Origin: Adineta ricciae
Taxonomy: Eukaryota > Rotifera > Eurotatoria > Adinetida > Adinetidae
Assembly (NCBI GenBank): GCA_905250025.1
Contig: CAJNOJ010000063.1
Location: forward strand, 186,001-250,000
Length of the DNA: 64,000 bases
Direction: 5' to 3'
This document shows, in pieces, positions 1-62,981 of this stretch. The position numbers and the translations under genes are program-made. The number at the start of each line of letters is the position of its first letter. Position 1 is the first letter of the stretch. The notes below the pieces were generated by a model, which saw nothing but the letters and a program-made list of their open reading frames with translations, ran no database searches and was not told the DNA's origin.

Positions 1-46
1 CTTACGAAATTACTTTAATAACAAAAAAAACTTTTTTTTGGTGTAT

Positions 47-1880
47 ATGAAAGTAAATAATATTTCTAACTATAAAATATCGGAATATTTTCCCAGTCGA
101 AACAATTTTCAAACAATCATGATTCAAAAATGGTATGACGTCTTGCAAAGTTCCTCCCCATGGAACTTTTATAGAATTTCCTTCGATCTTCTCATTATCG
201 CAAATCCATGGAATTTAATTCAATGGTTTCTTCTAACAACCATTACCATGGCACTTACAACATATTTTAATGTGTCATTTTTCTCAACAATTACATTAGA
301 TGTTACTCAAGGTTTGAAGTATCTTTTGATGTTAATCATAACCCAGACGGCTTCATCGTATTGTTCACTTCGACTACGTTCAGTGAAGAAAACATTTCTT
401 CTTGATTTTCTCGAACAATTTCTAACAAAGATAAATCAACGAATTCTCAGCGCGAACTGGATTCAAATCAAATTATCCGATCAAGTTGAAATTCGGCGAA
501 AGATTGAAGAAGCATGCTGTTCTGTTTTAAATCTAGTCGAGGATCTGATCGACAAGTTTCAGGAAGTTTCTAAATTTCTCGTGACGATTCTTACAATCTT
601 TTATATTTGCCCATTAGCAACGATTATAATTGGTATTATTTACATGTGTTTCTATCGATTTTATTTGAGCAAGCAAAGTGATAGATTACTGAATACGAAA
701 CTGAAAATCATTGAAAGAAACGAGAAATTAAATTCAAAATATGCGCGAGCCAATGCAAATATGTTCGAATATGTTATTCATCACGAGAAAAACCACATCA
801 TTCGGGTTACAAATGAATTAAAAGTTGATATCGAACGAGCATGGTTTGATCTCGATCATCTTTACGATTATTTATCATTGAAAGAAGATATTCTTGGTAA
901 ACTATGCACATTCGTCACCATTACTATATATTATTCTTTAAATGGTGTAACAACTTTTATTCTTCCATTATATCATTATCTATCAACGTTGACAGATAAT
1001 GTTCATAGTTTGTTCACTTCATATATTCGTTGGTTAAGATGGAAAAAAGATTATGATGTTATTCAGCCAATCCTTGAAGAGCATCATGAACGAAGCAATG
1101 TCGAACAAGTCGATTTGCAGTCTCAATTTCAAATTTGTGATCTGTCATTCCATTATAGTGGAACAAGGCAAACATTTCATTTACAACTTCCTAATTCACT
1201 AACATTTAATATGGGAGAAACAATATTAGTCACAGGAAAAAGTGGAGCTGGTAAAGTTGTCTTTCGTCAATATCATTCAATTTCATATTCAAAATTTAGG
1301 TAAATCAACGTTTTATGATATTCTTAATGGTTCGATACCGATGAGTGATTATTCAGCTACAGTCTGTATCGATCATCCCGAACACCCGGGAACGTTACAT
1401 TCGATCGAAAAATCCCGAACGATGGTTTTACAAGATAGTAACATGGACTATCGATCAACTATCTACAGTATGGTAACAAATATCGACGAAGATGATGTGA
1501 ATCAAGAACGTACACCTGAACTCGACTCACTTGTATGGGATTTACTACATCTGGTTCAAATTGACGATTTCGTACGAGATGAACTCGACAGCGATCTAAA
1601 TCAAGAAATGGAAAATAAACTTAGTGGCGGTCAAAAGACACGATTGTTATTAGCACGAGCCTTGTATCGCGCGTATCATCGTCATTCGACATTACTTGTT
1701 CTTGATGAACCTGACAAAGGTTTGCCATCCGAAACAACAGTAACAATCATAGAGAATATTATCAAATGGTACCGACCAAAAGGTATCCTCTTCCTTACTT
1801 TGCACACTGAACAAGCACATGCACTTGATTTCGATCAAATTCTGCATGTTGAACAAGGTGTGATTACCAAAGTCAAGTAA
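47..1880 (+). CDS. Half-size ABC transporter (membrane domain plus ATPase), 2 exons
   Basis: Exons 47-1250 and 1300-1880, about 594 aa. The intron (49 bp) splits the Walker A glycine codon: splicing gives GKSGAGKST, whereas unspliced reading loses the Ser/Thr and stops. The N-terminal two thirds hold several hydrophobic segments (about residues 55-110, 180-210 and 285-310), followed by an ATPase domain with Walker A, a Q-loop (MVLQDS), signature LSGGQK, Walker B LLVLDEPDKG and an H-loop histidine (TLHTEQ). One membrane half and one ATPase means it should work as a dimer. I chose the ATG at 47; an upstream exon may lie outside the window. The compact membrane domain resembles bacterial-type half exporters more than the usual animal ABCB/C/D proteins, but the substrate and the exact subfamily cannot be told from sequence alone. 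Confidence 0.85.
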
Positions 1881-2135
1881 AATATTAGAATACATTTCGT
1901 AGTAAATAATACATTTTATGTAAACTTCGATTGTCACAAATAAATAAGTTCAATTGTTTGTTACAACTAATGATAATAAATGGGCGACAAAATTTCTCTC
2001 CTAGGTAACGAGTACATCATTTGTTGGATTTGGGACTCTACATCGTAGTCGTTTTTCATTCAGAAAGCATAAAAAATTCATTCGTAATGAGGAATTGCCA
2101 GTGTACCATAATTATCGTACACAGTGACGCAGGCA

Positions 2136-2181
2136 GGGGGGGGGGGGGTTCGACGGGACAGCCCCCCCCCCCCCCCCCCCC
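2136..2181. repeat. G13 tract followed by C20 tract inside hAT left end
   Basis: Thirteen G (2136-2148) and twenty C (2162-2181) are separated by a 13-nt spacer. The two tracts are complementary and could form a hairpin, or G-quadruplex and i-motif structures. Homopolymer lengths of this kind are often mis-sequenced, so the exact counts are uncertain. Confidence 0.8.
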
Positions 2182-2254
2182 TTCCGAAAAAAATTGTTTT
2201 GTAAATTTTTAAGCTAATCTTTTAGTATTAAGAAATATTCTTCAAAAAATCGCT

Positions 2255-2968
2255 ATGCAAATCTCAAGCTTAATCCCGTCCTATATTTCTGATATTCAAT
2301 CTTCTGATGTTTCTCCATTGTTTCATCATTACCAAGATGATTTACAAGCTAATGATACGAACATACACAAGGCGGAATTTGACACATGGAGATTTTCTAT
2401 TCTTCGGTTGAAAGAAAATGAACGACCAAATAAAATAATCGAAACATTAGAATTTATACAATCTATTAAGTTTTTTTATCCGAATATCTATATTTTATTA
2501 CAAATTTATGCACTTATTCCAGTCTCGGTGGCTAGTGCAGAACGATCATTTTCAGTCCTGAAATTGATCAAAACAAAGCTACGCAATCGAACTGATGATG
2601 AACGGCTCAGTAATTTGGCAGTTATAAATATTCATAAAGGCATTGCTCAAGAATTAAATATAGAAAATGTGATTGACGAATATGCCAAATCAAAACGCAA
2701 ATTAAATTTCAGNTTTTATGCGAATATCTATATTTTATTACAAATTTATGCACTTATTCCAGTCTCGGTGGCTAGTGCAGAACGATCATTTTCAGTCCTG
2801 AAATTGATCAAAACAAAGCTACGCAATCGAACAGATGATGAACGGCTCAGTAATTTGGCAGTTATAAATATTCATAAAGGCATTGCTCAAGAATTAAATA
2901 TAGAAAATGTGATTGACGAATATGCCAAATCAAAACGCAAATTAAATTTCAGCAATCAAGATAAATAA
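2255..2968 (+). pseudogene. hAT transposase C-terminal fragment (dimerisation domain)
   Basis: The frame encodes the C-terminal hAT dimerisation region, recognisable from the stretch IPVSVASAERSFSVLKLIK followed by LRNRT and LSNLAVINIH. The catalytic RNase-H-like core and zinc finger of a full transposase are absent, so this is a truncated copy. The dimerisation stretch appears twice because copies 2474-2712 and 2714-2952 flank a single N; they differ at only two of 239 positions, so the doubling is most likely an unmerged assembly overlap. Without it the fragment is about 157 aa. Confidence 0.8.
2474..2952. repeat. Assembly join: 239-bp direct repeat around single N (2713)
   Basis: Positions 2474-2712 and 2714-2952 match at 237 of 239 bases and are separated by one N. 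This is the pattern left when two overlapping contig ends, perhaps allelic, are joined without merging. Treat one copy as redundant. Confidence 0.8.
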
Positions 2969-3399
2969 GTATCGTAGTTATTATGTTTTCGGTTTCCTTT
3001 TGTAAAAATTATATTTAATTATAAATGAATGTGAATATTAATAGATAGTACAGCACTCATTAAGATGAAAAATAGACCTGTTAAAAAATCGATAGTTACA
3101 GAGTTGATCCCGCCCTTCCAAAAAATCCTGGCTGCGTGACTGATCGTACATCAATCAATCCGTTCTTTTTCAATTATATTAGCTTTGAATTAGATGCAGC
3201 TGTTGTCATGGATTATCATGCTCGTCGTACACGTGATCGATTGGAATTTACATCATCGTTCAAAAATAAACTCATATTTATAAATGAAAGTCGCAAATAT
3301 TTTAATGAATTTGCTTTTGGAATCGACAGAGTTCGTCGAGATCTACTCGGAAACGATGTGTTCTTAATTGGAAACCCCTTTGTCGCGAATCGTAGTTGA

Positions 3400-4776
3400 A
3401 AAAAGTCGAATCTTATTCTAAGATATCCTACGTACATATTCATTGGTTTAACTATTCCCAAGAAATCTGTCTTTACCGACATCATTATTGAATTCAACAA
3501 TTGATCATCATTCCACTCTATAACGTTTTAATGTACCTCAATTCATGCTTTCTATCAATAGATATTTACTATTGTTTATAATAGACTACATTGTTGAAGT
3601 ATCATTTTGAATAAGTTCAACAATTCTTCGTTGTAAAACACCAGATATAGATTAGAATAGAATCAATGAATATAGAAATAAATTGAACGAAGAAATTTTC
3701 TGAAAATATTCTCTGTGGTATCAAGTATCTTTCTATAGATTCATTTCCCAGACACATATTCAACTCATTAGCAATTTTATTCGCCACGTGAACAATATCA
3801 ACTTGTTCGATAATTCAATCATGTTTGAATGTTATTGTCGATACTTTCGAATTTAGTTTTTGAGTCAATCAACAGAAAATGTCATTCAGCCAACCTTATG
3901 AATTATTTTCTTATTCAAACGCGTACATTTCAATTATCGGTCCCACTTTTGAGAAGCTCTTCGCTATCATCATCAATGAGTGTTCGATCACAGATGCTTA
4001 CAGAAGAAACAACTACTGAAAGTGATTTCAAACTTCACTGATTTTCAGTGAAACAGTATGTACGTAGAGTTTAAAATGTGATATTGAAATTTTTTTTTCT
4101 TCATTTAGGTAAATCGACATATTGGAGAAAATCGCATAAGCGTTTAATTCAGATATGATGAAAACGAATACAACGATTATTTGAAGGGTGACTCTTGTTA
4201 GTAAATACTTTTTTTGTCCATGTACTTTTTTTGCACAAAAAAATCGTTTGTGTATTACCTTTATGATTTTTGCACCACAAATCACTTTAGACGGGGGTCT
4301 CCTACCTGTATAGGGGATTTGACGGGCCCCACCCCTTCTGTTACTATTCAAAGATTTCGTACGTTTAGTTTGATAATTTCTGGAAGTTCATAATCACTCA
4401 AATTAGCTTTGGACAAGTACGAAAAACTTATCGACATCCTCGTGGTAAGCTTCTGAATGCGGGATGCTCTTGGTTTTTATGACCAAATTCAACAAAAAAA
4501 AAGACATGATTACTCGTTCGATCGGATATTTATTAGTTATCACATTTAAGCTTTCATAATACATTTTTTGATGAGTTTGGTAGGCGAAATCGATTTGTGT
4601 AATTCATATTGAATGAGTAAATAATGTTTTGATGCATATTATTCATGCGATGACGTTTTCTTACACGATAATACTTTTTGAGTGATCGATTGTATTGAAA
4701 GGAAGTCACGCATGAAAAATTATGTACTTTTTTCTATATGATTTTAGAAAACATATACATAAAGGTGAACAACAGG
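3400..4776. other. Intergenic, no supported gene
   Basis: About 1.4 kb of AT-rich DNA. Short open frames here lack splice context or domain signal. The only structured piece is the G/C-rich block at about 4313-4345 described separately. Confidence 0.5.
4313..4345. mobile_element. Possible relic of a hAT left-end sequence
   Basis: The block GGGGATTTGACGGG, then CCCCACCCCTTCTG, parallels the hAT left subterminal sequence at 2141-2187 (GGGGTTCGACGGG, C-tract, then CTTCCG). No matching terminal repeat or target duplication is visible, so it would be an old fragment. The similarity is short. Confidence 0.3.
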
Positions 4777-4862: not shown

Positions 4863-5177
4863 ATGTTCGGTGGACATCATCATCATCATCATCACGGTAG
4901 GAAGCGACATTTTTAAATCTTGTTATTAGTTTTTGGTATATTTTGAGGAGGCATGGGTGGCGGACCAGGAATGGGTGGTTTTGGAGGACATGGAATGGGA
5001 ATGGGTGGTTTTGGAGGACCTGGAATGGGAATGGGTGGCTTCGGAGGACCCGGAATGGGAATGGGTGGCTTCGGAGGTCCCGGAATGGGAATGGGTGGTT
5101 TTGGAGGACCAGGCATGGGTGGATACGGTGGCTCCTACGGTTATGGTGGTGGAATGGGCGGCGGACCATTCTTTTAA
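4863..5177 (+). CDS. Small Gly/Met-rich protein with His7 tract, 2 exons
   Basis: Exons 4863-4896 and 4948-5177 (intron 51 bp, phase matched) give 87 aa. The protein starts MFGG, followed by seven histidines, then tandem units of the type GGFGGPGMGM repeated about five times, and ends GGGMGGGPFF. There is a TATA box upstream and an AATAAA at 5231-5236 downstream, so the gene looks complete and strongly expressed. There is no signal peptide. The reverse-strand frames across this repeat are only mirror images of it. Function is unknown: the composition suggests metal (His, Met) binding or a low-complexity, self-associating protein, which is inference. Confidence 0.75.
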
Positions 5178-5539: not shown

Positions 5540-6263
5540 TTAATTAATATTATCAGTTGACTTTTGAAAACCAATTTCCAACGATTTCTGACTTCCTGCA
5601 TTAGCAAACGATAAAAACCAATTGGTGATGAGATCTGACTTGTTCCATTTGGCGTGAAATTCAATTGAAATATGAACCGTAAAAACTCCCCTAAACAAAT
5701 TCAAACAATCGTCAATTTTCTCTTTCTTCTTCTCGTTTTCATTACCATCCAATCCTTGTTAATCGAAAAGGTGGTTGATCCAGAATGATCTGCGATGGAG
5801 AAAATGTTGGATGTAAATGAATCTTCACCTGTTTAACATATTCACTAATTTCATTCGGATCTTGATCATCATTATCAAATTTAATAAATAAAGTCCATTC
5901 ATGTTGTTTATGGTGATAATCACAGGACAATAATTGATGCGTATTACCGATGACTAATCGTTTTTTGATGATATTTTTTCTTTCATTATCTAATTCGTTT
6001 CGTCGAATTTCATATTCATCAGCGTACATTTCACGAAAGAGATTATGAAGAATTGCATTGGGTTTCAATTGATTGGAACACGAACGAAGATAAGTTAAAT
6101 CTATTCGACAAATGGGACATCTTAATAGCGAATCGGATGCGATTATAAGACGTTCAAGACATAACAAACAAAATGTATGTCCACATAACGTCGAAACTGG
6201 TTCATAGAGAAGCTTTAAACACAATGGACAATCTCGATAAGTTTCTAAAAGATTTTTATTCAT
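5540..6263 (-). CDS. RING finger + YEATS domain protein, 2 exons
   Basis: Exons 6263-5746 and 5690-5540 on the minus strand (intron 55 bp) give 222 aa. The C3HC4 RING has all eight ligands: C12, C15, C27, H29, C32, C35, C49 and C52. After a charged helix-like linker (about 80-102) comes a YEATS fold: HEWTLFIKF, then KIHLHPTF, PPFRL and, formed exactly at the splice junction, IGWGVF. Residues equivalent to the acyl-lysine-binding set of AF9/GAS41 are present: H151, T153 (Ser in AF9), F154 and W173. The combination suggests an E3 ubiquitin ligase directed by an acyl-lysine reader, possibly on chromatin. The LHPTF wording also resembles prokaryotic-type YEATS domains. I know no standard animal protein with this pairing. 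The function is inference; the domains are clear. Confidence 0.85.
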
Positions 6264-6337
6264 CTAAAATAAATTCAAATTTCCGACAGAAAAATAAAAC
6301 AACGAATAACACCGGAGAAAAGTAAAACATTCAGAGA

Positions 6338-6578
6338 TTAATTACGAATAGGAAGTTTTACAACATGAATACACCGAGATGATTTCATATCATGATCAGT
6401 TTCATTCAGATTTAGATGATGATGATGTTCATATGGCCAAAATGGACGAGAGACATACTAAAAAACCAAATAATGAAAAGAAAAAGAAGGAAATAAAGAG
6501 ATTTACCGGTCGCTTTTGATGAACTTTTTTCGACGATTGACCAACACAGAAGGAGAAATGGTTGGTTGCATTTCCCAT
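6338..6578 (-). CDS. Small 63-aa protein of unknown function, 2 exons
   Basis: Exons 6578-6507 and 6457-6338 on the minus strand, joined across a 49-bp GT-AG intron with the frame kept and no stop until TAA at 6338. The protein begins MGNATNHFSF, which fits an N-myristoylation motif (Gly2, with Thr and Asn nearby), has a short basic stretch and a His4 run, and ends KLPIRN. I do not recognise the family. It lies between the RING-YEATS gene and the hydrolase, all on the same strand. The evidence is the clean splice and open frame only, so it could be a chance open frame, but intron size and phase match the neighbours. Confidence 0.5.
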
Positions 6579-7315: not shown

Positions 7316-7754
7316 AGTCTGTGTCTGCGGAAAAAAAAAGAAAGATCTTTCAACTTTCAAAATACAATCTCGGTGACATGTGATTCGTCGTTCCAACCTA
7401 TACTATTCCATCTCGATTGTCAGTCTGTACAAACGCGACATCTATGTCACATTTGGTTCAGTAGAGTAACGCACTACTTGAAAGTTTCAGCGAAAATACA
7501 TGTGCTGTCTTTTCAATCGATGCTATTAAACGTCCATTGATTCTGTGCACATATTCTTTCACACTTTTTAAGTACACAACTCGTTTGTCAGTATTTAAAG
7601 AAAAAAAATGTAATTATATAGGTATTATTTTTTGTGACTACAAGCTAGAAATCATGAAGGTGAAGACAGAATAAAAAAAAGTCGGATGACGGTTACATAT
7701 CAATAGACGATATTCATATATAAGTACGAATATTTGTCGAGGAAAGTAAAAGAA
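7316..7754. promoter_or_regulatory. Divergent intergenic region with TATA box at 7717-7723
   Basis: About 440 bp between the hydrolase (leftward) and the ankyrin-ART gene (rightward). TATATAA at 7717-7723 is about 30 bp before the ART start codon, so its 5' UTR would be very short if this TATA is used. Confidence 0.4.
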
Positions 7755-8783
7755 ATGGCAGCACTGACTGTCAGTGAATTATATTTAGCCTGCCGCAATG
7801 GCGATAAAGCAACAGTCGAACGTTTATTATCCCGAACTCCTTTGAGAACTCTCAATTGTCTGGAACCAAATGGAAGTACATGTCTTCATGCTGCTTCATA
7901 TCATGGACACAAAGAAATTGTTGAAATACTTTTACGACACGGTGCTTCCCGACGAATGATTAATCGATACGGTTGTACGCCGTTGGATGAAGCGAAAACA
8001 GAAGAGATCGCCCGACTTTTTCCAAGATCGACTGAAGCAGCAAAACAACGGTTTTGTAATAATCCGGCTCAGCAATTAGAATGGCAATTTGAGAACGATT
8101 CAGCAGAATCCTATTCACGCGCGACTCATTGGGATTGTGTCAAAGATCGTGGAATCAAGAAAACGATAAAAAAACTTCGAAAAGCTCAGGCTATATTTGA
8201 TGATGGAAGCGGATCAAGTGCACTTGTGGCCGATTTTTTTCAAGCAGCTTTAGATACCAATGATCCAATTTATTTACTTCGAGCGTATACAGCTGAAAGT
8301 CCGTTTTATATCGAATTAAATCGAGAAATGGCACGTGGAAATCAAAAGGAAGTTTTTCGAAAATTATGTAAAAAATGGACGGGATTTTATACAGGTTTAA
8401 TCGTGAAAAATCCCGCTTTCGAACCCTATCGATTTAGCGGAGAAACGTACCGAGGAATGCAAATCACACCGGTAGATTTACAACAATATAAAATCGGTAT
8501 TGCTCTTGCAAATAAATCATTTCAATCTACATCAAAATCTTGGAAAGTCGCCAAAGGTTTTGCCTGTCCGTCGCAACCGAAACCTGGAACAATTCCAGTG
8601 ATTCTTTTTTTTACAATTAAAGATCGACGATCAGCATTGAATATCGATCAAATATCTGAATATCAAGGTGAAGAAGAAGTTCTTATCATTCCAGGAACTT
8701 TATTCATTATCAGTGATATTGATAAAGAAAGTCGACCATATGAGATTCATTTAGAACAACTTCAATGGGCGGATGAATTTTAA
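7755..8783 (+). CDS. Ankyrin-repeat mono-ADP-ribosyltransferase (ART domain)
   Basis: 342 aa from the ATG at 7755, single exon. Residues about 8-105 hold ankyrin repeats (for example GSTCLHAASYHGHKEIVEIL). The C-terminal half is an arginine-type ADP-ribosyltransferase with the R-S-E signature: R233 in TYRGM, S258-T-S260 after FQ, and E306-E-E308 (the ExE pair that sets arginine specificity in this family). It would transfer ADP-ribose from NAD+ to protein arginines. There is no signal peptide, so it should be cytosolic, and the ankyrin repeats may choose the target. Such ART genes are expanded in bdelloid genomes and are often called horizontally acquired. The domain call is firm; the target is unknown. 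Confidence 0.85.
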   Translation: MAALTVSELYLACRNGDKATVERLLSRTPLRTLNCLEPNGSTCLHAASYHGHKEIVEILLRHGASRRMINRYGCTPLDEAKTEEIARLFPRSTEAAKQRFCNNPAQQLEWQFENDSAESYSRATHWDCVKDRGIKKTIKKLRKAQAIFDDGSGSSALVADFFQAALDTNDPIYLLRAYTAESPFYIELNREMARGNQKEVFRKLCKKWTGFYTGLIVKNPAFEPYRFSGETYRGMQITPVDLQQYKIGIALANKSFQSTSKSWKVAKGFACPSQPKPGTIPVILFFTIKDRRSALNIDQISEYQGEEEVLIIPGTLFIISDIDKESRPYEIHLEQLQWADEF

Positions 8784-12538: not shown

Positions 12539-13806
12539 ATGAATCATAATGGAAGGGTAAATTTTTCTCGAAAATATTTTCATTATATCATTTCTTTGTT
12601 TCCAATAGATAACTATTCCAAGTGAACTCATTGGTTCAATTCCTCGACCTGACTACTTATTATCCGCAGTTCGTGATCATGATTGTGGAAGAATGACAAA
12701 TCAACGTTTCCATGATTATGAGAATCGATCAGTTCAGATTACAATCAGTGAATTGGAAGCAACTGGATCGCAAGTTATCACTGATGGCGAACAAACAAAA
12801 TCATCTTTTATAATTTATGCAATTCAACAACTCATTAACGAATATTATACATTCTCTTCGGGTTGTTTCTCTTTGACATTTGCTGATGGTCGACAACATA
12901 TTCTTCCGCGTTTAGTCAAATCCCCATTTCGTCATGCTACCTATGCTCATACATATCTTGATAATGCAAAGAGATTTACTCATTTACCGATAAAGTAACA
13001 CTCGATCTTGATATTCATTTCTATTTGAAAATTCTGCTTTCTATAGACAAGCGGTGATTAGTCCGTCAGCTCTATCAATGGTTTATCCCACAGCAACGAT
13101 TAAAAATTATTCTCATGAACAGTTTCTCACCGATCTGATCAATGAAACGGAAAAAGAAATTCGTTTATGTTTGGAAAAAGGTGCGCATTGTGTTCAAATC
13201 GATTTTGTCGAGGCAAATTTTGCATTAAAACTCGATCCAACGGGACATCTCCTACGCGATTTTGTTCAACTGAACAATTGCGTTTTAGAACGATTCGCTT
13301 TCGAAGAACAACATCGTCTGGGTGTTCATCTTTGTTCAGGTAAGTCGTATAACTACCAAATCTTATTCAATAATTCTTTAATTCATAAAGGTGGTGATCA
13401 AGAATGTCATCATTCATTCGATGCACATTATTTACAAGTTCTTCCGAAAATATTCGATCTTCATGTGTGCAATTTCTACCTTCAATTAGCAAGTGAACCT
13501 GATCGAGAACAAGTGTTGCAATGCGTTCAGAAATATATGCAACCATGGCATCGAATTTTCATTGGAGTTATCGATCCTGTTGATCCAAAAATTGAAACAC
13601 CTGAAGAAGTTTGTGAACGAATATTAGAGGCAACGAAATATATTCCAATCGAACAATTAGGAACAACTGATGACTGTGGATTTGCTCCATTTGATGATGA
13701 TCGATTGATCACAAGAGAAGCTGCATTTGAGAAGATTCGAGCACGTTTAGAAGGAACAAAAATGGCAGAGGAACGATTAATGAAGAAAAAATCAAAGAGT
13801 ATTTAA
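12539..13806 (+). CDS. MetE-like cobalamin-independent methionine synthase family protein, 4 exons
   Basis: Exons 12539-12556, 12609-12994, 13047-13339 and 13391-13806 give 370 aa. Only the C-terminal catalytic barrel type of MetE is present, as in the short single-domain forms of bacteria and fungi. Seen: GSIPRP near the start, ITDGEQTKSSF, QIDFVEANF, the zinc-type pair in GVHLCSGGD, NFYLQLASEPD and LGTTDDCGFAPF (third cysteine). The third intron (51 bp) has no stop and keeps frame, but removing it gives the family pattern HxC.GGD..., so I splice it. Likely role: methyl transfer to a thiol such as homocysteine, with folate or another methyl donor; true substrate uncertain. In MetE a Glu completes the zinc site, whereas here FYLQLAS has Gln there, as in this short subfamily. 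Possibly horizontally acquired. Confidence 0.8.
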
Positions 13807-14113
13807 ATTTGATTTTCTCGTCGAAATGAATATTTCATATTTTGTACTGTATTGTACTTAGAATAAATTATTGTCGTGAATAGTCTTCATTCAGAATAGA
13901 TTGATAGAATATTCTGCAGTTGATGTACTGAGAAAGTTTATATTTATCGGTAATTACATTAATTTATAATGCTTCAGGATATTTCTATGTCATTCAAATG
14001 CACTTTTTCATACGAAATGACCGATTCTTAACATATCGAGGCGAGTGTACCGTTATTTGAATACAGTCCTTGAATATGTTTTCTGGGCTTTCTATTTGCT
14101 TATGACCGAAAAG
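13807..14113. other. Intergenic
   Basis: AT-rich spacer holding an AATAAA-type signal at about 13862 for the upstream gene and the promoter of the GH16 gene. Nothing else seen. Confidence 0.5.
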
Positions 14114-14120
14114 TATATAA
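14114..14120 (+). promoter_or_regulatory. TATA box of GH16 gene
   Basis: TATATAA lies 45 bp upstream of the ATG at 14159. The decayed paralogue at 16269 has a matching AT-rich stretch at the same distance, which supports this being the promoter. Confidence 0.6.
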
Positions 14121-14158
14121 ATCGCGAACTCAACATTTGTTTTCATATTCCAAGCATC

Positions 14159-15040
14159 ATGTTTCAACTCTTCAGTTGTTTTCTGGCTTTTCTTCTTTTC
14201 AACAACATTCTCAGTTGGAGTCCATCAAATTTCACTTACAATGCTGGTCAAGATTACAGTCTCGTCTGGGAAGATGATTTCGAAAATGTCGGTGCCATCA
14301 AAGCAACAATCAATGGCGCACCGGCCTATGCACCAAATTCAGCAAATTGGGTTCTCAATACCGGAAATATCAACGGTGGTTTACAAAATTATACGAATTC
14401 TATTGATAATGCTTACGTTCAGAATGGTCAATTGAATATTGTTGCATACAAAGAAGGATATACATCAGCAATGCTTTCCAGTGTTGGTCTTCGAGAATTC
14501 ACCTTCGGAAAATTTGCAGCAAAAATCTGTTTACCATATGGACAAGGTATATGGCCAGCATGGTGGTTACTTGGAAACGCTTGGAATAAATACAAACTCT
14601 ATTGGCCGACTGTTGGAGAAATTGATATTTTGGAAATGATCGGTGGACGTCAATGGGGAACTCCAAACGACAAAATCGCACATGCAACAATTCATTGGAA
14701 CAATGCATCGAATGCGATGTCACCATTGTATCATGCTTCATACGGAACACAATGGCAAACACCTGATGGATCTTTGCTGCATAATAATAGTCTAGTTTAT
14801 TGGACAGAATGGACCCCAACACAAATTAGTATTGGATTGAATGAATTTACATATTTTCAATTTAATACGACGAATATCACTCAATCGATCAATCCAGTCG
14901 ATGCTTTTGGTGGTAAATGGCCTTTTTACATGATATTGAATATTGCTATTGGAGGATCATGGCCAGGATCACCAAACAATAGTACAGTTTGGCCTCAACG
15001 AATGGTTGTCGATTGGATTCGGGTTTATCAAAAACCGTAG
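14159..15040 (+). CDS. Secreted GH16 endo-beta-1,3-glucanase (laminarinase type)
   Basis: 293 aa, single exon, start at ATG 14159 because it begins a clear signal peptide (MFQLFSCFLAFLLFNNILS). GH16 beta-jelly-roll features: DYSLVWEDDF near the start, GKFAAKICLPYGQGIWPAWW, the catalytic signature GEIDILEM (E-x-D-x-x-E, complete) and WPFYMILNIAIGGSWPG near the end. It should cut beta-1,3-glucans of algae, fungi or yeasts in the gut. A pseudogene copy follows 1.2 kb downstream. GH16 glucanases occur in many invertebrates, so transfer is not required to explain it, but the absence of introns next to intron-rich neighbours is notable. Confidence 0.92.
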   Translation: MFQLFSCFLAFLLFNNILSWSPSNFTYNAGQDYSLVWEDDFENVGAIKATINGAPAYAPNSANWVLNTGNINGGLQNYTNSIDNAYVQNGQLNIVAYKEGYTSAMLSSVGLREFTFGKFAAKICLPYGQGIWPAWWLLGNAWNKYKLYWPTVGEIDILEMIGGRQWGTPNDKIAHATIHWNNASNAMSPLYHASYGTQWQTPDGSLLHNNSLVYWTEWTPTQISIGLNEFTYFQFNTTNITQSINPVDAFGGKWPFYMILNIAIGGSWPGSPNNSTVWPQRMVVDWIRVYQKP

Positions 15041-25298: not shown

Positions 25299-26455
25299 AT
25301 GTTACATGCTGGTATAGAGGCACTTTTTGGACGAAATCGTGATCATCATCGTAAACGACATTTGTTTCGTCTTCGTCGACATCATCATAGTCACAAAGAT
25401 GAAGCTGATGAATTGGCAAATCTCTTTTCCAGTAAACCGCACACGGACAAAGACATTCTTTATGGAGACAATTTTGCCTTCGCAGCAATGCAAGGCTGGC
25501 GAGCCTCCATGGAAGATAGGCATAAACATTTGCTTAATTTCGATAATCGATCGTGGAAACTATGGTCGTATTTCGCTATCTTCGACGGACACAATGGTAA
25601 GTTGAATTTCAATAGGTCTTTCAGTAAAAACGTGCTTTTTACAGGTGTCGATACAGCAAAAAAGGCGGCTGATCATCTCGATATTCATTTATTAGAAGCA
25701 ATGAATGAAATGCTTTCCCATCAGGATGATTCGACGGTGACAAATGGTGAACCAGTTCGTTCATCTCAGCTTGATCTAAGCAAACTACGTGCAGCGATTA
25801 AACAAACATATTTCGAACTCGATAAAAACTTAAAAAACATGATCAAAGATGACAGTGGATGTGTTTGCGTACGTTGTTTGTCATTCGATTGTTACCAAGT
25901 CTAAAAATAGTTTGTTTTTCTAGATCACTTGTTTAATTGGACCAGAACAAATCTATCTGATCAATATTGGTGACTCACGTGCGATTATTTTTTCGAATGA
26001 AGGACATATTTTAGCGCATACCGAAGGTTAGGATACATCTCGATTGAAATCAGTTATTTTCAGTGAATTTATATTTAGATCATAAGCCTGATGATCCAGC
26101 TGAACAAGAACGTATTCATGAGGCCGGAGGGAAGATATCAAAGCCTTGTCCGGGGGATGTTTTACGAGTAGAAAATCAATTAGCAATGACTCGAGTGTTA
26201 GGAGATTTTACAATGGATAAACATATTGTTCCACCAATGGCAGATATTGTCGAATATCCAAGAAATTCCTCCGCAGCTTTTGTTGTACTTGCGTGTGATG
26301 GTATTTGGGATGTGATGACAAATACGGATGTTGCATCATTTGTTATTGAACGTGTTACGACAAATAAACTTGAAGATATCGCTGCTCAATTATTAGATGA
26401 ATGTCTGCGCCGTCAGAGTACAGATAATATGAGTGTTTATATTGTAAAGCTTTAA
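25299..26455 (+). CDS. PP2C-type Ser/Thr phosphatase (PPM family), 4 exons
   Basis: Exons 25299-25596, 25645-25868, 25924-26026 and 26079-26455 give 333 aa. All PPM motifs are present: MQGWRASMEDRH, FAIFDGHNG, NIGDSRAI, LAMTRVLGDF, LACDGIWDVM and DNMSVYIV, with the metal-binding aspartates intact. The N-terminal about 45 residues are very basic and His-rich (HHRKRHLFRLRRHHHSH), a possible nuclear or nucleic-acid-binding tail. Compared with PPM1A/G the usual SGSTA segment is replaced by SGCVCITCLIG, formed across the second splice junction. It is a Mn/Mg-dependent protein phosphatase; the substrate is unknown. Confidence 0.92.
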
Positions 26456-26673
26456 TTCGATCCTATTTTTTTTTGTTTGTATTTAATGCTAAAAACCATG
26501 TCCTTATTTATGAATATACATAAAACACTTGGTCATATACTCTTGCAAAAAAATGCTTTTTTATTGAAAAACTACATGGTAATGTTCGATGATGATAAAA
26601 AAACGACATGTGTCTCATAGTTCTTTATTTATCGTAGAGATTTTGATGATGTTATCTCATTCTTTGCGAAACG

Positions 26674-28785
26674 ATGCGTTCGCAATCCGACACACGTCGC
26701 AGTACTTCAGCTTTATTATATGATGAAAATGCTGAAACAATCGATGCAATATTAGATCAAAAACCATTATTAGGTTATACAGATCTGATCGAACTTGATA
26801 AACATGAACCGTGGTACCGTCGAATCTACACCAGATATGGTTTGTTGATGATTTGTCGTTTTTATTTTCATTTGTTAAGTTTTCAGTGATCGCTGGATGG
26901 GCGTTTTTCGGTTTTCTTTGTTTGTATATGCTTCGTGTGAATCTATCGGTTGCAATTGTGGCAATGACAGTGCCACAAGGTCCGAAAAATGACTCAGTCG
27001 AAGCATGTCCGTCGGAAATGAATGAATCAAGCAGTCATCCAGCAAAGGTCTTCCTTTCTATTTGTTTCTTTTTAACAATTAAGTTTAGAGAATGTGTCTT
27101 ATAGCATGGAGATTTCCATTGGGATTCTGTAACTCAAGGTTATGTCTTAGGTTCATTTTTTTATGGTTATATTCTGTCACAATTCATTGGAGGTAAGCAA
27201 TTGAAGGAATAAGAAGAGATTAAGATAATCGAGATTTGATTTATAGGAATATTAGCTGAACGATTTGGTGCGAAATGGGTCTTTGGTGGTGGTTTATTAG
27301 GTGCAGGAATACTTACATTACTTGCGCCAACTGCAGCGAAGATTCATGTTGGTTTGCTTATTGCAATTCGCATTTTTATTGGTATACTTGAAGTAATAGA
27401 ACATCAGTTACCCATTGACATTTTTCTTAATCGAAATTTCTTTGTTTTGAGGGTCCCGCATTTCCGAGTGCGGGTGCATTGTGGGGTCAATGGATTCCTC
27501 CTTTAGAAAGAAGTATCATTCCACCAATAGCACATTCTGGTAAAATTAATATTAAAAGAAAAAGAAAAGAAAGAGAGTAGTTGTTCTTTCAGGAAAAGAA
27601 GTTGGTGTCATTGTCACAACACCAATTGCCGGTCTTCTTTGTTCATCTGACTTTCTTGGTGGTTGGCCAGCAGCTTTTTATGTTTTCGGTAAGGATTGAT
27701 CTATTTTTCTTCAAAAGAAAACTAAAAAGAATCATTTAAAAGGTATCATTACATGTGTGTGGTTTGTATTCTGGTGTTTCTTCGGTTACAACTCTCCTTC
27801 ACAACATCCGCGATGTTCGGAAAAGGAACGAACTTATATAATCGCCTATCTTCCAAAACCGAAAAAGGTAATTTGTTTTACTCATACGTTGGTTTCAATC
27901 AAATTTTTCATAGTTGAAAACTCCCTGGAAGCATATTTGGAAATCTTTACCATTTTGGTCAATTGCTGTTGCTTCGACATGTGTTCAATTTGTCTATTAT
28001 GTTCTATTAACATCCCTACCCATATATTTCGCAAGAATATTAAAATTTGATTTGCAAAAAGTAACTTTCCTCAAATAGTTTTCTTTGAAAACATTTTCTC
28101 TTCGATTTAGAATGGTGTGATGTTTGCAATTCCTTATTTCTTCATGATGATCGTCATTATCGTCAGTGGACAAATCGCTGATCGCTTACGAGCACGAAAA
28201 ACTTTATCAACGACAACTGTACGAAAGTTACAAACAATCATTGGTAAAATTCCTCATACTTTGTCATTTTCACAACTAATTTTCTTCGGGAAGACTAGGT
28301 GGAGTTGGTTCATCGGCATTTCTAGTCGCGATTGGTTATGTTGGATGTAGCAAAGTCGGAGCAATGATTTGTATCACATCAGCTGTTGCCTTTATTGGTT
28401 TCCATTCGAGCGGTTGTCATATTTCACATTTGGATATCGCCAGTAACTACGCAGGTGAGATTTCGAGAGAATTTCGACGAAATTTGACTGAAAATTTCGT
28501 ATTAGGAACACTTGTTGGCATTACGAACACATTAGCATCGATTCCTGGCTTTGTAGGTCCTTATGTGGTTGGAGCAATAACGTATGAGAATGTAAGGAGA
28601 TTGAGAAATGTTTATTTCGTTGACATTGAACTTTTGTTTAGCAAACGGTTCATGCGTGGAAGATTATTTTTGATTTATCAGCTGGTATTGGTCTATTTGG
28701 AAGTTTATTTTATTGTATTTTCTTTGATGGGAATGAACAAGAATGGAATCGATATGGTGTTGAAGAACTAATTGAAGATGAATAA
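26674..28785 (+). CDS. SLC17-family transporter, second copy, multi-exon
   Basis: About eleven short-intron exons from ATG 26674 to TAA 28783; the first ones are 26674-26839, 26887-27047, 27105-27192 and one starting 27247. Landmarks parallel the minus-strand copy: VIAGWAFFGFLCLYMLRVNL, AERFGAKWVFGGGLL, GPAFPSAGALWGQWIPPLE, NGVMFAIPYFFMM and SHLDIASNYAGTLVGITN. The N-terminus carries QKPLLGYTDLIELD with a dileucine-type sorting signal. The conserved sites of splicing between the two copies (for example after RY in the first helix, and before the FPSA element) show that they descend from one intron-containing gene by duplication and inversion. Substrate unknown. Confidence 0.87.
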
Positions 28786-28950
28786 GTCGCGTTTTTATTT
28801 GTTTTCTCGTTAAATTGTTATCAAAAATAAAAATGATTTCGCTGATTAATTACAAAAAAAAATGTCGCTTTTGTTTTATTTATAAATGCAGTAAAAAGAC
28901 AAACTCGTATTAAATACTCAAAGAGATTAAGTATGAAAATGCTTTTTTGT

Positions 28951-31900
28951 TTAATTAAAACTGTAGTTTTCCGGTGCGTTGTACGTGTAATTCCAGGATA
29001 ATTCGATTCCTTCTAATGATGCCGATTTGATTCGTTTTTTCAAGCGATTTTGCCGTAGAATCTTCGATAATGGCGGTAAACGATTGTTTTCATTCGGACG
29101 AGTGACATTTTTCAACGCATCTTTTAACAATGTATTGTCCGTATTCATCAAATTCTAAAAAAAACAAGACTTCAAACAGATTCAAAGTTCAATTTGTATT
29201 ACAAACCTTTGCTTTCGCTGTTGTTTCTAAAATAAAACAGAAGAGAATGGAAGAGATGCGAAAGAAAAGTGTTCTTACGTGGTCTTTGCGCAGATTGTTT
29301 GCATTCATAGCGATGGAAAGTGTTCCATCCATTTTCGAGACAAGTTTTCGAACAAAATGAAACCTTTTGACATCGCCGACAGATATTTAATCGAACACCG
29401 ATGCTTCGACCACATGTCCCACAATAACGAAATTCTTGAGAGTTGAAACGAGTAGAACTCGATCCATCTAGACGAAAATCAAAGCTTTTCCCATAGATAA
29501 ATCTTCAGATTTACCGATCGTCGAGGGAGATAAACGCAAAAATCCGTCGTGTTTTGTAACTTCTTCACGAAATCGTTTAGCAATGTAAGTGAGTAGCTCC
29601 TTTCGTTGATTGAATATCGTTCGTTCTTGATTTGTCAAGGAATGATACGGAGATTGAGCAATTCGAGTATCCTGTGAAAGAAAATTCAGCTAATTTTGAA
29701 GAAAAAGAAATTTTTGTATCTTCTTACAGCAAAAAACATGTAATAAGCATAATCTACACATGAACCAAGCAGATTCTTTGGTCCGAATCGCACAGGATAA
29801 AGAACTTGAGGATTTTTAGCGATCAAACGTTCGATCTAAATAAAACGAAAACAATTAATAGGAAAAAGTTTTTTACTCTTTATACTAATTGAATTCTCTT
29901 TGAATAATTCCACGAAGTTTCATAGAATGTCGACAAAGCCATACATAAAGCATTTCCATTGCCAAAACCAAGTACAACTGATGGATCAGTTTGATCATAT
30001 TGAAGAAGTAAATCAACTAACGGTTCATTTCCGAATACAATGGCAAGAGTCAATGGAGTTTGACCATTACAAATCGCATTCGGATTCGCTTGATGTCCGA
30101 GTAGAAGTCGAACAAGATTCAATGTATCTTCGGATCGGGGACGAGTACATGCAATATGCAACGGCGTTCGACCATTCTGTGGAACTTCAATCTGAAAGAG
30201 AAGTTCTTCATTTATCAAATTGAATTCTTGAAGAATTTACTGTTTTAATCAAATCGAGAACCAATGGATCGATCAGTGAATAATATTCTTTATTATTCGC
30301 CAATGATTCTGCATTGACATCCGCACCGTACTCTAATAACAATCGAGCAATATCAACAACAGTCGGTGCTAAACAACCGCATGCGATATGTAATGGCATA
30401 AGACTTGAATGCCGAACAGAATCTAATCGACAATTGACATTTGCTCGTTTTTTTAATAGTAATTCCACCATTTGTTTATCTCCTGCACGAACAGCTAAGA
30501 CAAGAACAGGTAAAGGCCAATCGCTATATGATGGATCAGCACCACGACGAAGAAGAAGACTAAATATTTCGAAATATAAAAGAGGAAATTGATGCGAATT
30601 TCTTACGCAATGATTGAATAAACCCGCTCACGATATTGTTCATCACGAATTCGTTGACGAAGTTCATCAGTTAATTCAAATCCATATGAATCTACAGAAT
30701 TCATAAAGAAACTCTTGACTCGATCGTCAGTTTTACTTACGATTTACACTCAATGTTTCAAATACTTCTGGTAATTTTACTTCATCGATAATTTCATTCG
30801 GTGTTTCTTGTTTTAAGATCGTTAAACCGTTCTTATCTTTAGAGAGCAAAACCCGAGGATTCGGAATCGATGGATCTTTATGTTCTAACGCAAGGTTCAC
30901 CGTTTGCAAATAATCATTTCCATAATAAAGCAAAAAGGCGATCATAAGTGGAGTAAAATGTTCATCAGATAATTGATTAACATTTGCTCCGAAATCCAAA
31001 AGTGTATTGATGATATTTATATGAAGTTGATATGTGGCAAAATGCAAAGCTGTTAAACCGTGAGAATCACAAACATCGACATAAACGAGACGTTGCATTA
31101 GAAGATGACGAACGTCTTTTTCGTAACCGTAATAAGATAATTCGAAAAGATTCAATGAGGCGTTTTCTAATGGACCGGGATTTGGAAATGAAGAACGAAT
31201 ATCTAAAAATGAAATGGAAATACAACGATTTTTGAAGAAAGAGTTACTCACTGGAGAGAATATCGTCGATTGGAAACGATGCACGTTGTTTTAATGGCCA
31301 AAATTTGTTTAGATAATCGTATAATTTCCGCTGTTCGTAAGTTTGATTTGGTGAAGTAATATCTGTAATTTGATCGTTTAATTTCGAAAGATTTTCATCA
31401 ATACTCGAGAGATAAGCTTCTAATTCATTTCGTTTACCACGTAGGGCTTCGTTAACACCCTCCGTATGTTCACTGATAAAACGAGTTAGAGACGATTTTT
31501 CATTGGAAATCTGTTGGAATAAACGTAAAGGAGATTTTTTATGTAGAAGAAAATGAAAATCTGTAAGATTGAGAAAGAATTCTTCTGGTGAATACCATGC
31601 CGATGATTGTGTTGCTGACAAAGTCGAAATTTTCTTTTCGGTTATATGAATATCGATCGATAATTTCGGATGAGGATATAGTAAACGAATAAGATCTTCA
31701 CTTAACCATAAACCCACATCTGCACTTTGAAGTTTTTGATAAAGTAAAATTCCCGGGCCGAATCTTTCATCTTGACAATACAAACCCTGAACAAAACATT
31801 CACAGATCGACATTTAATGTGCATTGACAAATTCAGACCTTGAATTCAGAGATATCCGGTGTATGAAATATCCCAAAACCATGTCGCCGATCTGCAAAGA

Positions 31901-32262
31901 AAGCACCTGTATATTTTCGTCCATCGGACCACGATAACATTCCTTTTCCATGTTTTTTCTCATCATAAATATCACCGACATATGTCTAAAGGTACGAATT
32001 ATTTTAAAAAATCACTGTCGCTTGAACTTACACATTCTTCATTGCTTGTTTCTTGAACGGGGAAAGTTTCATCGGGGCCAACACCAATCGAAACAGTCGA
32101 AATTTCATTTAGAAGAGGATTCATGGTTTCAATGACTGAAGAAAATATCTTTAAAAAAACCTTGAGAAGGCATATCGAAGTTTTACCTGATGAAATTTCA
32201 TCATTTGTGGATTCCTTCATTTGCTCTCGAGATCTACTTGTGAATGAAATTAGATCGGTCAT
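28951..32262 (-). CDS. ANKMY1: ANKMY1-like protein: MORN repeats, ankyrin repeats, MYND zinc finger; multi-exon
   Basis: About ten exons on the minus strand, ATG 32262 to TAA 28951. After a short acidic N-terminal region come MORN-type repeats (TYVGDIYDEKKHGKGMLSW, then YTGAFFADRRHGFGIF), a helical linker with coiled-coil character, two groups of ankyrin repeats (DSHGLTALHFATYQLHINII, PLHIACGCLAP, GRTPLHIACTRP, GQTPLTLAIVFG), and near the C-terminus a MYND zinc finger (CGTCGRS, then CRRCQKVSFCSKTC, then WNTFHRYEC). This MORN-ANK-MYND order is that of ANKMY1, a poorly studied animal protein expressed in ciliated and germ cells. Its first coding exon and upstream DNA are duplicated at 38924-39425. 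Confidence 0.85.
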
Positions 32263-32725
32263 TCTTTTCTTTCTGAAATCACAATTTAAATATGAAAATT
32301 AACTACCCGGAACAAATTTTCATTAATTTTCAATGAATGACTCATAAACAAACGCTCAACTTATCGATGCCATTTACATCTTTGGATACCTAGGCAATGT
32401 TATGCATGGTTACCAGTATTTCAATTACAATCATCAATAGATGCCGCATATTTATTGAATTTGTATTTCACCGAAGTCATACGCAAAACTTTCTTCTTTC
32501 TTTGAACATGTGTTTAGACGTACAATTGATGAGAATGATCTCCGAGAATAGAATCCACTTCGGGATATGAAAAAAGGTTTTCATTCGAAACTCTCGGAGT
32601 GCAAAAAGCCATGTATAAGAGTGCACTCATTCATTGTCGCTTATGTGCATCGTCACTACTAACAATGATGGACATAATGAGGAGAAAAACAAAACTTTCT
32701 TTCTTTCATTGGTAATTGACATATA
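32212..32725. repeat. Duplicated segment, copy A (ANKMY1 first exon plus upstream DNA)
   Basis: Same-orientation copy of about 500 bp that recurs at 38924-39425. It covers the ANKMY1 start codon and upstream sequence. Shared near-identical stretches include ACTCATAAACAAACGCTCAA and AAGTGCACTCATTCATTGTC. The middle differs by indels. Confidence 0.85.
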
Positions 32726-33491
32726 TCGTCTCCTGATTTTGTTTAGTTTTAATCTTATCGTATACATTTAAAAAATATTGGTTACCACGATTGACTCAAT
32801 ATCTCGAGAATTTGAAGATCGATGCTTTCTGTTGAACAATCTTTGACGTATTCGGATCTTATGAACAAAGTCGGTAAGAATAAAAACTTCACGTTTTCAT
32901 CAATTTGGTCTTTTTTTCCTCTTTTTTCAATGTGTGGCGCACTGTATTGACATTTGGTTTTTTCTTATTGCAAAATACACGAGCAGATGAAAAGGAGAAT
33001 TGACTATAGTATTCTTTTGTCATAAAAGTATGTTTATTAAATTTGTGATCAGTGACATCTCTTTTGTCAGATATATTCTATCGACAAAATTCAGTAAAGA
33101 AACGGTTACATAGATTCGTGTGGATAACAAAGGAATAGTCTTTGTACAAGAGCCACCGACTTCGTCTTTTCTAACATTTATACCATGTGCATTAACAATA
33201 ACAAGGTATAATAACATTTTTCTCAACTGTTCCCTCAAAACTTAGTTCATATTGCCACATACATAGAAATGAATAATACTCCATTAAAAGGGAAAGAAGT
33301 AAAATCCAATTCTAATACTATATGATCATGATTGTAATCCACGGCAATCATCATATTGTTTTCCAGAGAAACGCACGTTATCTTCGAATTATGCCTAAGC
33401 TCTGTTTAAAAATTCCTTGTGCGATAGCACTCAACCAATTCTTCTTTTTTAGAGCAATCCAAACTATGATCCGGGACAGAGTCCTCACGAA
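32726..33491. other. Intergenic
   Basis: AT-rich spacer. A splice-acceptor-like site (cttttttag) about 40 bp before the coiled-coil ORF may bring in an upstream exon. Nothing else seen. Confidence 0.4.
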
Positions 33492-33701
33492 ATGGCAGCA
33501 ACGATTACACATTTAAATAACCAGATCAGCAATCTTACTAGTGAAATCGCTACCCTCATGGAAATTATTTCAAAATTGGAGAAAACAATTGAGAGTTTGA
33601 ATCAAAAAATAATGGTCTTAGAAGTTCAATTGCAACTCGAAAAAGAACGTCGATTAAAAGACTCGGACAGTTCAAATTCACCTCCAGCTGTTAAAGATTA
33701 G
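33492..33701 (+). CDS. Short coiled-coil protein
   Basis: 69 aa from ATG 33492; the open frame extends upstream to an acceptor-like site (reading SNPNYDPGQSPHE before the Met), so an earlier exon is possible, for example ending after the ATG-rich stretch near 33333. Residues 5-55 have heptad leucine/isoleucine spacing (LNNQISNLTSEIATLMEII, then LEKTIESLNQKIMVLEVQL), a clear parallel coiled coil; the end is Ser/Pro-rich. No family recognised. It may be an oligomerisation protein or the 3' exon of a larger gene. Confidence 0.5.
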   Translation: MAATITHLNNQISNLTSEIATLMEIISKLEKTIESLNQKIMVLEVQLQLEKERRLKDSDSSNSPPAVKD

Positions 33702-34353
33702 TGATATAAGTTCATTTAATTCATTAGACTTCATGATTTTATCTTTGCTATTTATCGATTGTTGTGTTTTGTCTTTGAAAAACAATTATAGTACTGTGAT
33801 TTAATTTTTCAAATATGTCTAAAATATTAGTAATTTTCACGTTTTTGTATGTATATAGTTCGTGTTTTTTGTCATTGACGTATTTACATATCAACTAAAA
33901 TGTGTGCATACAAAAGGTTTGAATAAACTAGAATTGAAAAATATCGAACAAAAGTCACCCATGTTCAAGTGCGTACTGTAACAGCATGATTAGTTTGATT
34001 GGTCTCGAATTCGTTTATGTCAACAATGCATTCACTTTTATATCTCCTCGATGTTTGGGTGAACACAATAAATAATCGCATCGATCGGAAACGTGTCTCT
34101 TCCTTGTTACAGGTACATCGGAACAATAGAACTGGGTACATTTATTGAAAACAGTTATTATTGAAGTTTTTTGCATACCTCGTTTTTTGAAATCTTAACT
34201 AGACATAAGAAAGTAACCAATCAACTCAAAAACACTGTGTTATCAGTGGCGATTATTTAGTGATAAGAAAGTGAGGTACGCGTTTCAATAAAAGTAAAGC
34301 GTAGAACGGAGAAAATTAGTCTTGTCTGATTGTTGTATTAGGAAAATACAATT
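33702..34353. other. Intergenic
   Basis: AT-rich spacer before the lyase; it holds the lyase promoter, but I see no clear TATA box. Confidence 0.5.
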
Positions 34354-55821: not shown

Positions 55822-56370
55822 TACATTCGATTGATATCTGTCCGTTTAGATGACGAGAGTTACTTATGACAGAATTCAATTCGAAAGAGAAACTCAACTT
55901 ATTTATCAGAACTGTCATTGTAGATTACATGATGCATAATCTATTGATTTAGGTAAGAAATGCGTAGGATTATCTTTGGTAATCGACATAAAGGCTCAGT
56001 TTATTGAATAGTGTACTGCATACGACTAGAATTACATAGATATAAAGTTTAGATCATCTTCGTCGAGGAAAGAAACGAATTGTTTATGAGAAATTAAATT
56101 TTCATCAATTCGTGTCGGATCATATGGACATTGTTCGACATTTTTGCAATATCAAGTTCTCATCTTTGTTCCAATATCTCGCGAGTACGACAACTTGATC
56201 TAGAATATTCGATACGTCACGAAACGATCAAGTAGCACTGATACTAAATTACTATGTACCTACACGAAGAAGATGTTCTCGTGATTCGACTACAAACAGC
56301 GCATAATTCTATGAACTAACAACACCGATTAGTCAATGTTATTTGGGCTCGATTGTTTCGTCCATGAGGA
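55822..56370. other. Intergenic between two GPCR genes
   Basis: About 550 bp, AT-rich, holding the promoter of the left GPCR and the 3' end of the right one. Nothing recognised. Confidence 0.4.
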
Positions 56371-62877: not shown

Positions 62878-62981
62878 AATTATCTGAACTATTGACAAAC
62901 ATATTGGAATGAATTTATTTAGCTTGAATAAATATTACAAATAAAATGAGAAACTAAATCAACGGAAGACAATATCATATT

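What the first reader, a model, noticed from the sequence alone, without database searches (positions are those of the whole stretch)
5540..6263. RING finger fused to a YEATS domain in a 222-aa protein
All eight RING ligands and the YEATS binding residues (H151, T153, F154, W173) are visible, and the YEATS GWGVF motif forms exactly at a splice junction, so the fusion is not an artefact. YEATS domains read acylated lysines; I know of no standard animal protein with RING plus YEATS. It could ubiquitinate acyl-marked chromatin, or serve a defence role if the YEATS is the prokaryotic-type one (the LHPTF wording is suggestive).
Basis: partly seen in the sequence, partly recalled or inferred. Interest (0 to 1): 0.8.

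Follow-up and report, generated by a model that had tools for sequence, protein, structure and literature searches.

The report
RING ubiquitin-ligase fused to YEATS acyl-lysine reader
A bdelloid rotifer carries a small gene that joins a ubiquitin-attaching domain to a domain that recognises acylated histones, a pairing for which we found no precedent and which may let the animal mark active chromatin with ubiquitin.

Summary
Confirmed: a minus-strand two-exon gene (6263-5746, 5690-5540; 55-bp GT-AG intron) encodes 222 aa with a C3HC4 RING (aa 12-52, Pfam 3.5e-9) and a YEATS domain (aa 119-202, 6.5e-20). RING and two thirds of YEATS share one exon, so the fusion does not rest on the splice; the splice scores 15 bits above any other GT-AG pair tried. 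The YEATS is eukaryotic, nearest human YEATS2 (57 bits; next 40). The pYEATS hit is not special: the animal's own GAS41- and AF9/ENL-type domains hit pYEATS too. The acyl-lysine cage is kept. The genome is bdelloid (41 spliced-leader exons, control 0). The gene is single-copy, not found in the homeologous stretch of contig C107, and the only YEATS2-like domain detected. Best reading: a compact E3 ligase drawn to acylated H3 that ubiquitinates chromatin, in logic like TRIM24/33 (RING plus bromodomain; recalled). Expression, activity and occurrence in other species are untested; fold prediction was uninformative (pLDDT 42).

The parts
5746..6263 (-). exon 1 (518 nt): RING, helical linker and YEATS up to W173
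5691..5745 (-). intron, 55 bp, GT-AG
   Evidence: best-scoring of 201 GT-AG pairs tried
5540..5690 (-). exon 2 with stop: end of YEATS (GVF... to end)
   Evidence: spliced YEATS covers profile positions 2-79 of 80
6108..6230 (-). RING (C3HC4) aa 12-52
   Evidence: Pfam; BRCA1, TRIM, UHRF1 and RNF168 RINGs in the PDB; ligands checked
5958..6068 (-). linker aa 66-102, probably helical, joins RING to first YEATS strand
   Evidence: phmmer match of aa 11-92 with RNF168; helices in a low-confidence model
5603..5909 (-). YEATS domain aa 119-202, interrupted by the intron; acyl cage H151 T153 F154 W173 G174
   Evidence: Pfam; nearest human YEATS2; numbering
6264..6273 (-). TTTATTTTAG directly before the ATG: candidate acceptor for the spliced leader or for a 5' intron
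   Evidence: sequence; spliced-leader exons in the genome; not shown by RNA

Best explanation
The gene encodes a one-protein 'acyl-read, ubiquitin-write' chromatin factor of a bdelloid rotifer. The YEATS domain, a divergent YEATS2-like eukaryotic domain, binds acylated lysine (acetyl or crotonyl) in a histone H3 tail by clamping the acyl group between F154 and W173 with T153 as hydrogen-bond partner. The RING binds a ubiquitin-loaded E2, and ubiquitin goes to a nearby chromatin target, most likely histone H2A or a bound chromatin protein. Shown here: gene structure, both domains, metal ligands and cage residues, the eukaryotic YEATS2-like type, single copy, no copy found on the homeologue, and candidate H3 and H2A sites in the genome. 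Inferred: expression, acyl-lysine binding, E3 activity, target and biological role.
For: Pfam RING and YEATS over their cut-offs. YEATS nearest human YEATS2, 57 bits against 40 for Yaf9, 39 for GAS41 and TAF14b, 31 for Taf14, 29 or less for AF9 and 24 for ENL. Of the eight YEATS2 contact residues named in PMC5651844 (H259, S261, Y262, W282, G283, E284, F285, Y313; passages), six are identical or conservative here (H151, T153, F154, W173, G174, F176) and two differ (V175, N203) (alignment, numbering). T, F and W equal Taf14 T61, F62, W81 (PMC6212594 passages). RING nearest BRCA1, 49 bits, then TRIM31, 42; R53 follows the last ligand, the usual linchpin place (recalled). 9 of 9 loci fetched carry H3 N-termini ARTKQTARKSTGG...AARKSAP; 3 of 6 loci fetched carry H2A with KARAKAK, the acidic-patch residues (positions recalled) and LLPKK. 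Bdelloids already have a fused chromodomain-methyltransferase, N4CMT (PMC8885841 abstract and passages).
Against: No RNA and no orthologue or paralogue was available, so selection on the gene could not be measured. E284 and Y313 of YEATS2 are not kept, so H3K27 specificity is doubtful. YEATS2 orthology is not reciprocal: human YEATS2 scores the window domain (55.6 bits) below human GAS41 (76.6), two own GAS41-type domains (68.5, 59.8) and Yaf9 (63.0), and the window domain is not more identical to YEATS2 (30%) than to an own GAS41 (30%) or a Yaf9 fragment (34% over 68 positions). Pfam shows no second chromatin domain; nuclear location was not tested. The fold model is uninformative.
Confidence: 0.6

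Rival explanations
1. A real RING-YEATS E3, but the YEATS serves as a protein-protein adaptor for non-histone (or unacylated) partners, so the ligase is not guided by histone acylation.
For: Two of eight YEATS2 peptide contacts differ (V175 for E284, N203 for Y313); the domain is divergent (30% to YEATS2).
Against: The acyl cage (H151, T153, F154, W173, G174) and F176 are kept, which is not expected if acyl binding were given up.
Confidence: 0.17
2. On origin (compatible with the function above): the gene was acquired as a ready-made RING-YEATS fusion from another eukaryote by horizontal transfer, rather than made in bdelloids.
For: Single copy, not found on the homeologous C107 stretch, with detectable synteny ending in the small gene whose stop lies 74 nt before its start codon; bdelloid genomes are rich in foreign genes (PMC8885841 abstract passage); the window also holds MetE-, GH16- and squalene/phytoene-synthase-like genes; exon GC 0.324 is below that of four nearby genes (0.362-0.383).
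Against: GC3 0.238 is like three neighbouring genes (0.240-0.249; GH16 0.318) and exon GC is near the window mean of 0.334; loss from the homeologue explains the same pattern; no donor found, but no eukaryotic collection could be searched.
Confidence: 0.25
3. A young or decaying gene without function.
For: One copy, no homeologue found, no near allele in the assembly; no expression data.
Against: Eight ligands, the cage residues, an open 173-codon frame and a well-fitting splice junction are intact.
Confidence: 0.1
4. Prokaryotic-type YEATS (pYEATS) recruited for defence.
For: pYEATS profile matches at 32.9 bits, over its cut-off of 26.9.
Against: Eukaryotic YEATS wins by 38 bits; GAS41- and AF9/ENL-type domains of the same genome match pYEATS with 45.1 and 29.6 bits; nearest solved relative is human YEATS2; no relative in viral contigs, plasmids, phages or prokaryote contigs.
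Confidence: 0.02

Closest known systems
YEATS2 (YEATS domain of the ATAC acetyltransferase complex; ATAC link recalled)
   Same: Nearest YEATS by bit score (57 bits), alignment over aa 98-205, similar start (IIKKRLVIGN, FVKKTIVVGN), same cage layout H-x-S/T-Y/F and GWG-x-F
   Different: Human YEATS2 is a long protein without RING (recalled); E284 and Y313 of its peptide site are V175 and N203 here; orthology not reciprocal
Taf14 YEATS
   Same: Same cage trio T-F-W (T61, F62, W81; PMC6212594 passages)
   Different: Lower score (31 bits); Taf14 has no RING (recalled)
BRCA1, RNF168 and UHRF1 RINGs (chromatin ligases)
   Same: BRCA1 is the best RING match in the PDB; matches run past the RING into the following stretch (BRCA1 to aa 77, RNF168 to aa 92); R60 aligns with BRCA1 R71 (number recalled)
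   Different: Pfam shows none of their other domains; the basic helix of RNF168 (residues 59-68, PMC11854596 passages) is not evident by eye; several TRIM RINGs score above UHRF1 and RNF168
TRIM24/TRIM28/TRIM33 (RING plus PHD-bromodomain; recalled)
   Same: Same logic: E3 RING and acyl-lysine reader in one chain
   Different: Reader is YEATS, not bromodomain; no B-box in Pfam; 222 aa only
Bdelloid N4CMT (PMC8885841, abstract and passages)
   Same: Bdelloid fusion of a chromatin reader with a writing enzyme
   Different: Writes DNA methylation; its reader is a chromodomain

Membership tests
RING-type E3 ubiquitin ligase (RING-HC) | eight metal ligands C3HC4 in RING spacing | tested here: met
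   C-x2-C-x11-C-x-H-x2-C-x2-C-x13-C-x2-C
RING-type E3 ubiquitin ligase (RING-HC) | ubiquitin transfer with an E2 | not testable with these tools
   R53 after the last ligand speaks for it (recalled linchpin rule)
YEATS family (PF03366) | profile match over cut-off, nearly full length | tested here: met
   71.3 bits, cut-off 22, profile 2-79 of 80
YEATS family (PF03366) | aromatic cage with Ser/Thr and WG (or YA) motif | tested here: met
   T153, F154, W173-G174; motif descriptions in passages of PMC5651844 and PMC6212594
YEATS family (PF03366) | acyl-lysine binding | not testable with these tools
   needs a peptide binding assay
YEATS2 subfamily | best match in both directions | tested here: not met
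   forward yes (57 against 40 bits); reverse no, human YEATS2 prefers GAS41 and Yaf9 sequences
YEATS2 subfamily | 3HBD domain (PF22951; its link to YEATS2 is recalled) | tested here: inconclusive
   not among the Pfam matches of the 222 aa; no match in the genome, but nothing rang in the controls either
pYEATS (prokaryotic YEATS) | better fit to pYEATS than to eukaryotic YEATS | tested here: not met
   32.9 against 71.3 bits; comparison domains
TRIM family | RING followed by B-box and coiled coil | tested here: not met
   no B-box family among the Pfam matches; coiled coil not tested

The most novel reading that the evidence does not exclude
Bdelloids turned their only YEATS2-type acyl-lysine reader into a stand-alone ubiquitin ligase, so that histone acylation is read directly by a ubiquitin writer acting on their unusual H2A variants: a histone acyl-to-ubiquitin switch, possibly used in the chromatin response to drying and DNA breaks.
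Probability: 0.12. Interest if true: 0.7.

Novelty: new variant of a known kind. Interest (0 to 1): 0.5.

Why it matters
The paper searches made (listings only) showed no report of RING and YEATS in one chain. It would be a minimal enzyme linking histone acylation to ubiquitination, testable as a 222-aa recombinant protein, in an animal group reported to lack canonical H2A and H2AX (PMC2642717 passages) and to have remodelled its chromatin machinery by domain fusion (PMC8885841). It would also be a natural template for an acyl-directed ligase.

Tried and rejected
Prokaryotic or defence origin: not supported. A second copy, allele or homeologue: none found. A separate YEATS2 gene: none detected among 11 YEATS exon matches at 7 loci (only the best candidates are scored, so a lower bound) or with the human YEATS2 domain (9 matches at the same 7 loci); six-frame, exon-wise searches can miss split exons. 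YEATS2 3HBD search: uninformative, nothing rang in the controls. RING donor in the genome: of 81 matches to the protein, 2 are the gene itself, 1 is the GAS41-type locus on C179, 1 on C5 lies in the YEATS part but its frames, read, show no YEATS, and 77 lie mainly in the RING part; I fetched 14 of those places and read 14 frames from 13 of them: none stood out as donor, best 36.1 bits. A shared 5' exon with the Rieske-like gene on C107: rejected by reading; the conserved 37 nt belongs to a small separate gene, and its 21-nt core occurs once in the genome. Fold: exon 1 alone gave pLDDT 42.3 and pTM 0.27, so no structure search was run. NCBIfam: only a RAD18 RING match far below its cut-off and a TyrR match at 0.077. 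pYEATS in papers: no paper holds the word. DNA homology of window 1-4199, 26001-35999 and 55901-64000 was not searched. No tree was built, only pairwise scores. BRCA1 R71 was not found in PMC10639053 nor in the passages of PMC4382519 or PMC11854596; it rests on recall. Literature: one search listed 20 of 67 papers, one search listed 8 of 63; two searches found none.

Full report
What is there. On the minus strand, 6263..5746 and 5690..5540 encode a 222-aa protein; the 55-bp intron is GT-AG and 71% AT. Pfam finds RING models at aa 12-52 (best 3.5e-9) and YEATS at aa 119-202 (6.5e-20, profile 2-79 of 80). RING and YEATS up to W173 share one open frame of 173 codons that ends in a stop lying in the intron. 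Among 201 GT-AG pairs from 12 donors, the proposed one is best against both human YEATS2 (53.6 bits, next 38.3; 132 products scored) and human GAS41 (36.8, next 28.8; 109 scored).

Which YEATS. Against solved structures the YEATS part scores 57 bits with human YEATS2, 40 with Yaf9, 39 with GAS41 and TAF14b, 31 with Taf14, 29 or less with AF9 and 24 with ENL. In reverse, human YEATS2 prefers GAS41 and Yaf9 sequences to the window domain, so 'YEATS2-like and divergent' is as far as the data go. pYEATS matches at 32.9 bits, but GAS41- and AF9/ENL-type domains of the same genome, joined by eye, match it at 45.1 and 29.6 bits, so that match is no sign of prokaryotic origin. Scans of viral contigs (no pattern match), plasmids (21: none at E 1), phages (22: none at E 1) and prokaryote contigs (61: 23 pattern matches, none a relative) gave nothing.

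Binding and catalytic residues. PMC5651844 (passages) names H259, S261, Y262, W282, G283, E284, F285 and Y313 as YEATS2 contacts with H3K27ac. The aligned residues are H151, T153, F154, W173, G174, V175, F176 and N203 (alignment, numbering): six kept or conservative, two changed. PMC6212594 (passages) gives T61, F62 and W81 for Taf14, the same trio as here. The RING has C-x2-C-x11-C-x-H-x2-C-x2-C-x13-C-x2-C and R53 after the last ligand. Its nearest solved RINGs are BRCA1 (49 bits) and TRIM31 (42), followed by other TRIMs, RNF125, UHRF1 (34) and RNF168 (31). R60 falls opposite BRCA1 R71, recalled as an acidic-patch contact; this is a lead only, and the RNF168 basic helix (PMC11854596 passages) is not evident.

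Genome context. PMC1925144 (passages) reports that bdelloids trans-splice one 23-nt exon to more than half of their transcripts; it does not print the letters in what I saw. The RING-YEATS ATG directly follows TTTATTTTAG and lies 74 nt after the stop of a small two-exon gene on the same strand (6578..6338), which would suit a trans-spliced downstream gene; there is no RNA to show it. Seven loci hold the 11 YEATS matches: this gene, four GAS41-like and two AF9/ENL-like by reading, one of each checked against the PDB. No other YEATS2-like domain appeared.

Homeologue. Parts of window 8970-49640 are colinear with C107:48427-92423 at 66-73% DNA identity (window 26001-35999 not searched). Leftward, the ADP-ribosyltransferase gene (43% aa identity, 2e-54) and the small gene (33 of 37 nt) are also on C107, while RING-YEATS and the alpha/beta hydrolase are not found in C107:28700-48500 (best E 1.1 and 0.51). 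So the gene was gained on this copy or lost from the other. GC3 is 0.238 against 0.240-0.249 in three neighbours and 0.318 in GH16; exon GC is 0.324 against 0.362-0.383 in those four genes and 0.334 in the window: no clear sign of foreign origin either way.

Possible targets exist. Of the histone-family matches (38) I fetched 15 places. 9 of 9 show H3 N-termini with K9 and K27 in the usual setting, AARKSAP. 3 of 6 show H2A with KARAKAK, the acidic-patch residues (positions recalled), LLPKK and a long tail, in line with PMC2642717 (passages), which reports long unusual H2A tails and no canonical H2A or H2AX in bdelloids.

Judgement. The best-supported explanation is an acyl-guided ubiquitin ligase. 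Its parts are known kinds; the pairing did not turn up in the searches made, and RING plus an acyl reader is known from TRIM24/33 (recalled). No eukaryotic proteome was searchable, so rarity is unproven. Single-sequence folding of exon 1 gave no usable model.

Noticed in passing
6338-6578 (-): Small two-exon gene (63 aa, MGNATNH...; 49-bp intron) without Pfam match; by reading, a similar two-exon gene lies on homeologous contig C107 (L040 about 7716-7959, -). It ends 74 nt upstream of RING-YEATS.
   Followed up: partly
7707-8783 (+): Ankyrin repeats joined to an arginine ADP-ribosyltransferase domain (Pfam ART 2e-6); the C107 frame at L040 8736-9716 aligns over the transferase part.
   Followed up: partly
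2213-2968, 34342-36897, 62982-63563: Single N at 2713, 35885 and 63295, each flanked by the same coding sequence on both sides: looks like assembly joins that duplicate a stretch.
   Followed up: partly
L068 and L069 (C182), L070 (C4): H2A frames with long Ser/Pro/Lys-rich tails after LLPKK, as reported for bdelloid H2A variants.
   Followed up: partly
G000 contigs C2, C6, C8, C43, C77, C79, C99, C146: 41 spliced-leader exons, many in divergent pairs about 153 bases apart, clustered on few contigs.
   Followed up: no
4863-5177 (+): Short gene for a His-run and Gly/Met-rich repeat protein (GFGGPGMGMG repeats), possibly with a short intron after the His run.
   Followed up: no
L031 (C56:383500-393400): Tandem pair of GAS41-like genes about 4.6 kb apart; a further near-identical pair lies on C66 and C179.
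   Followed up: no
12609-15040, 53297-54718: MetE-like, GH16 and squalene/phytoene-synthase genes, of the kind often seen as acquired genes in bdelloids (recalled).
   Followed up: no
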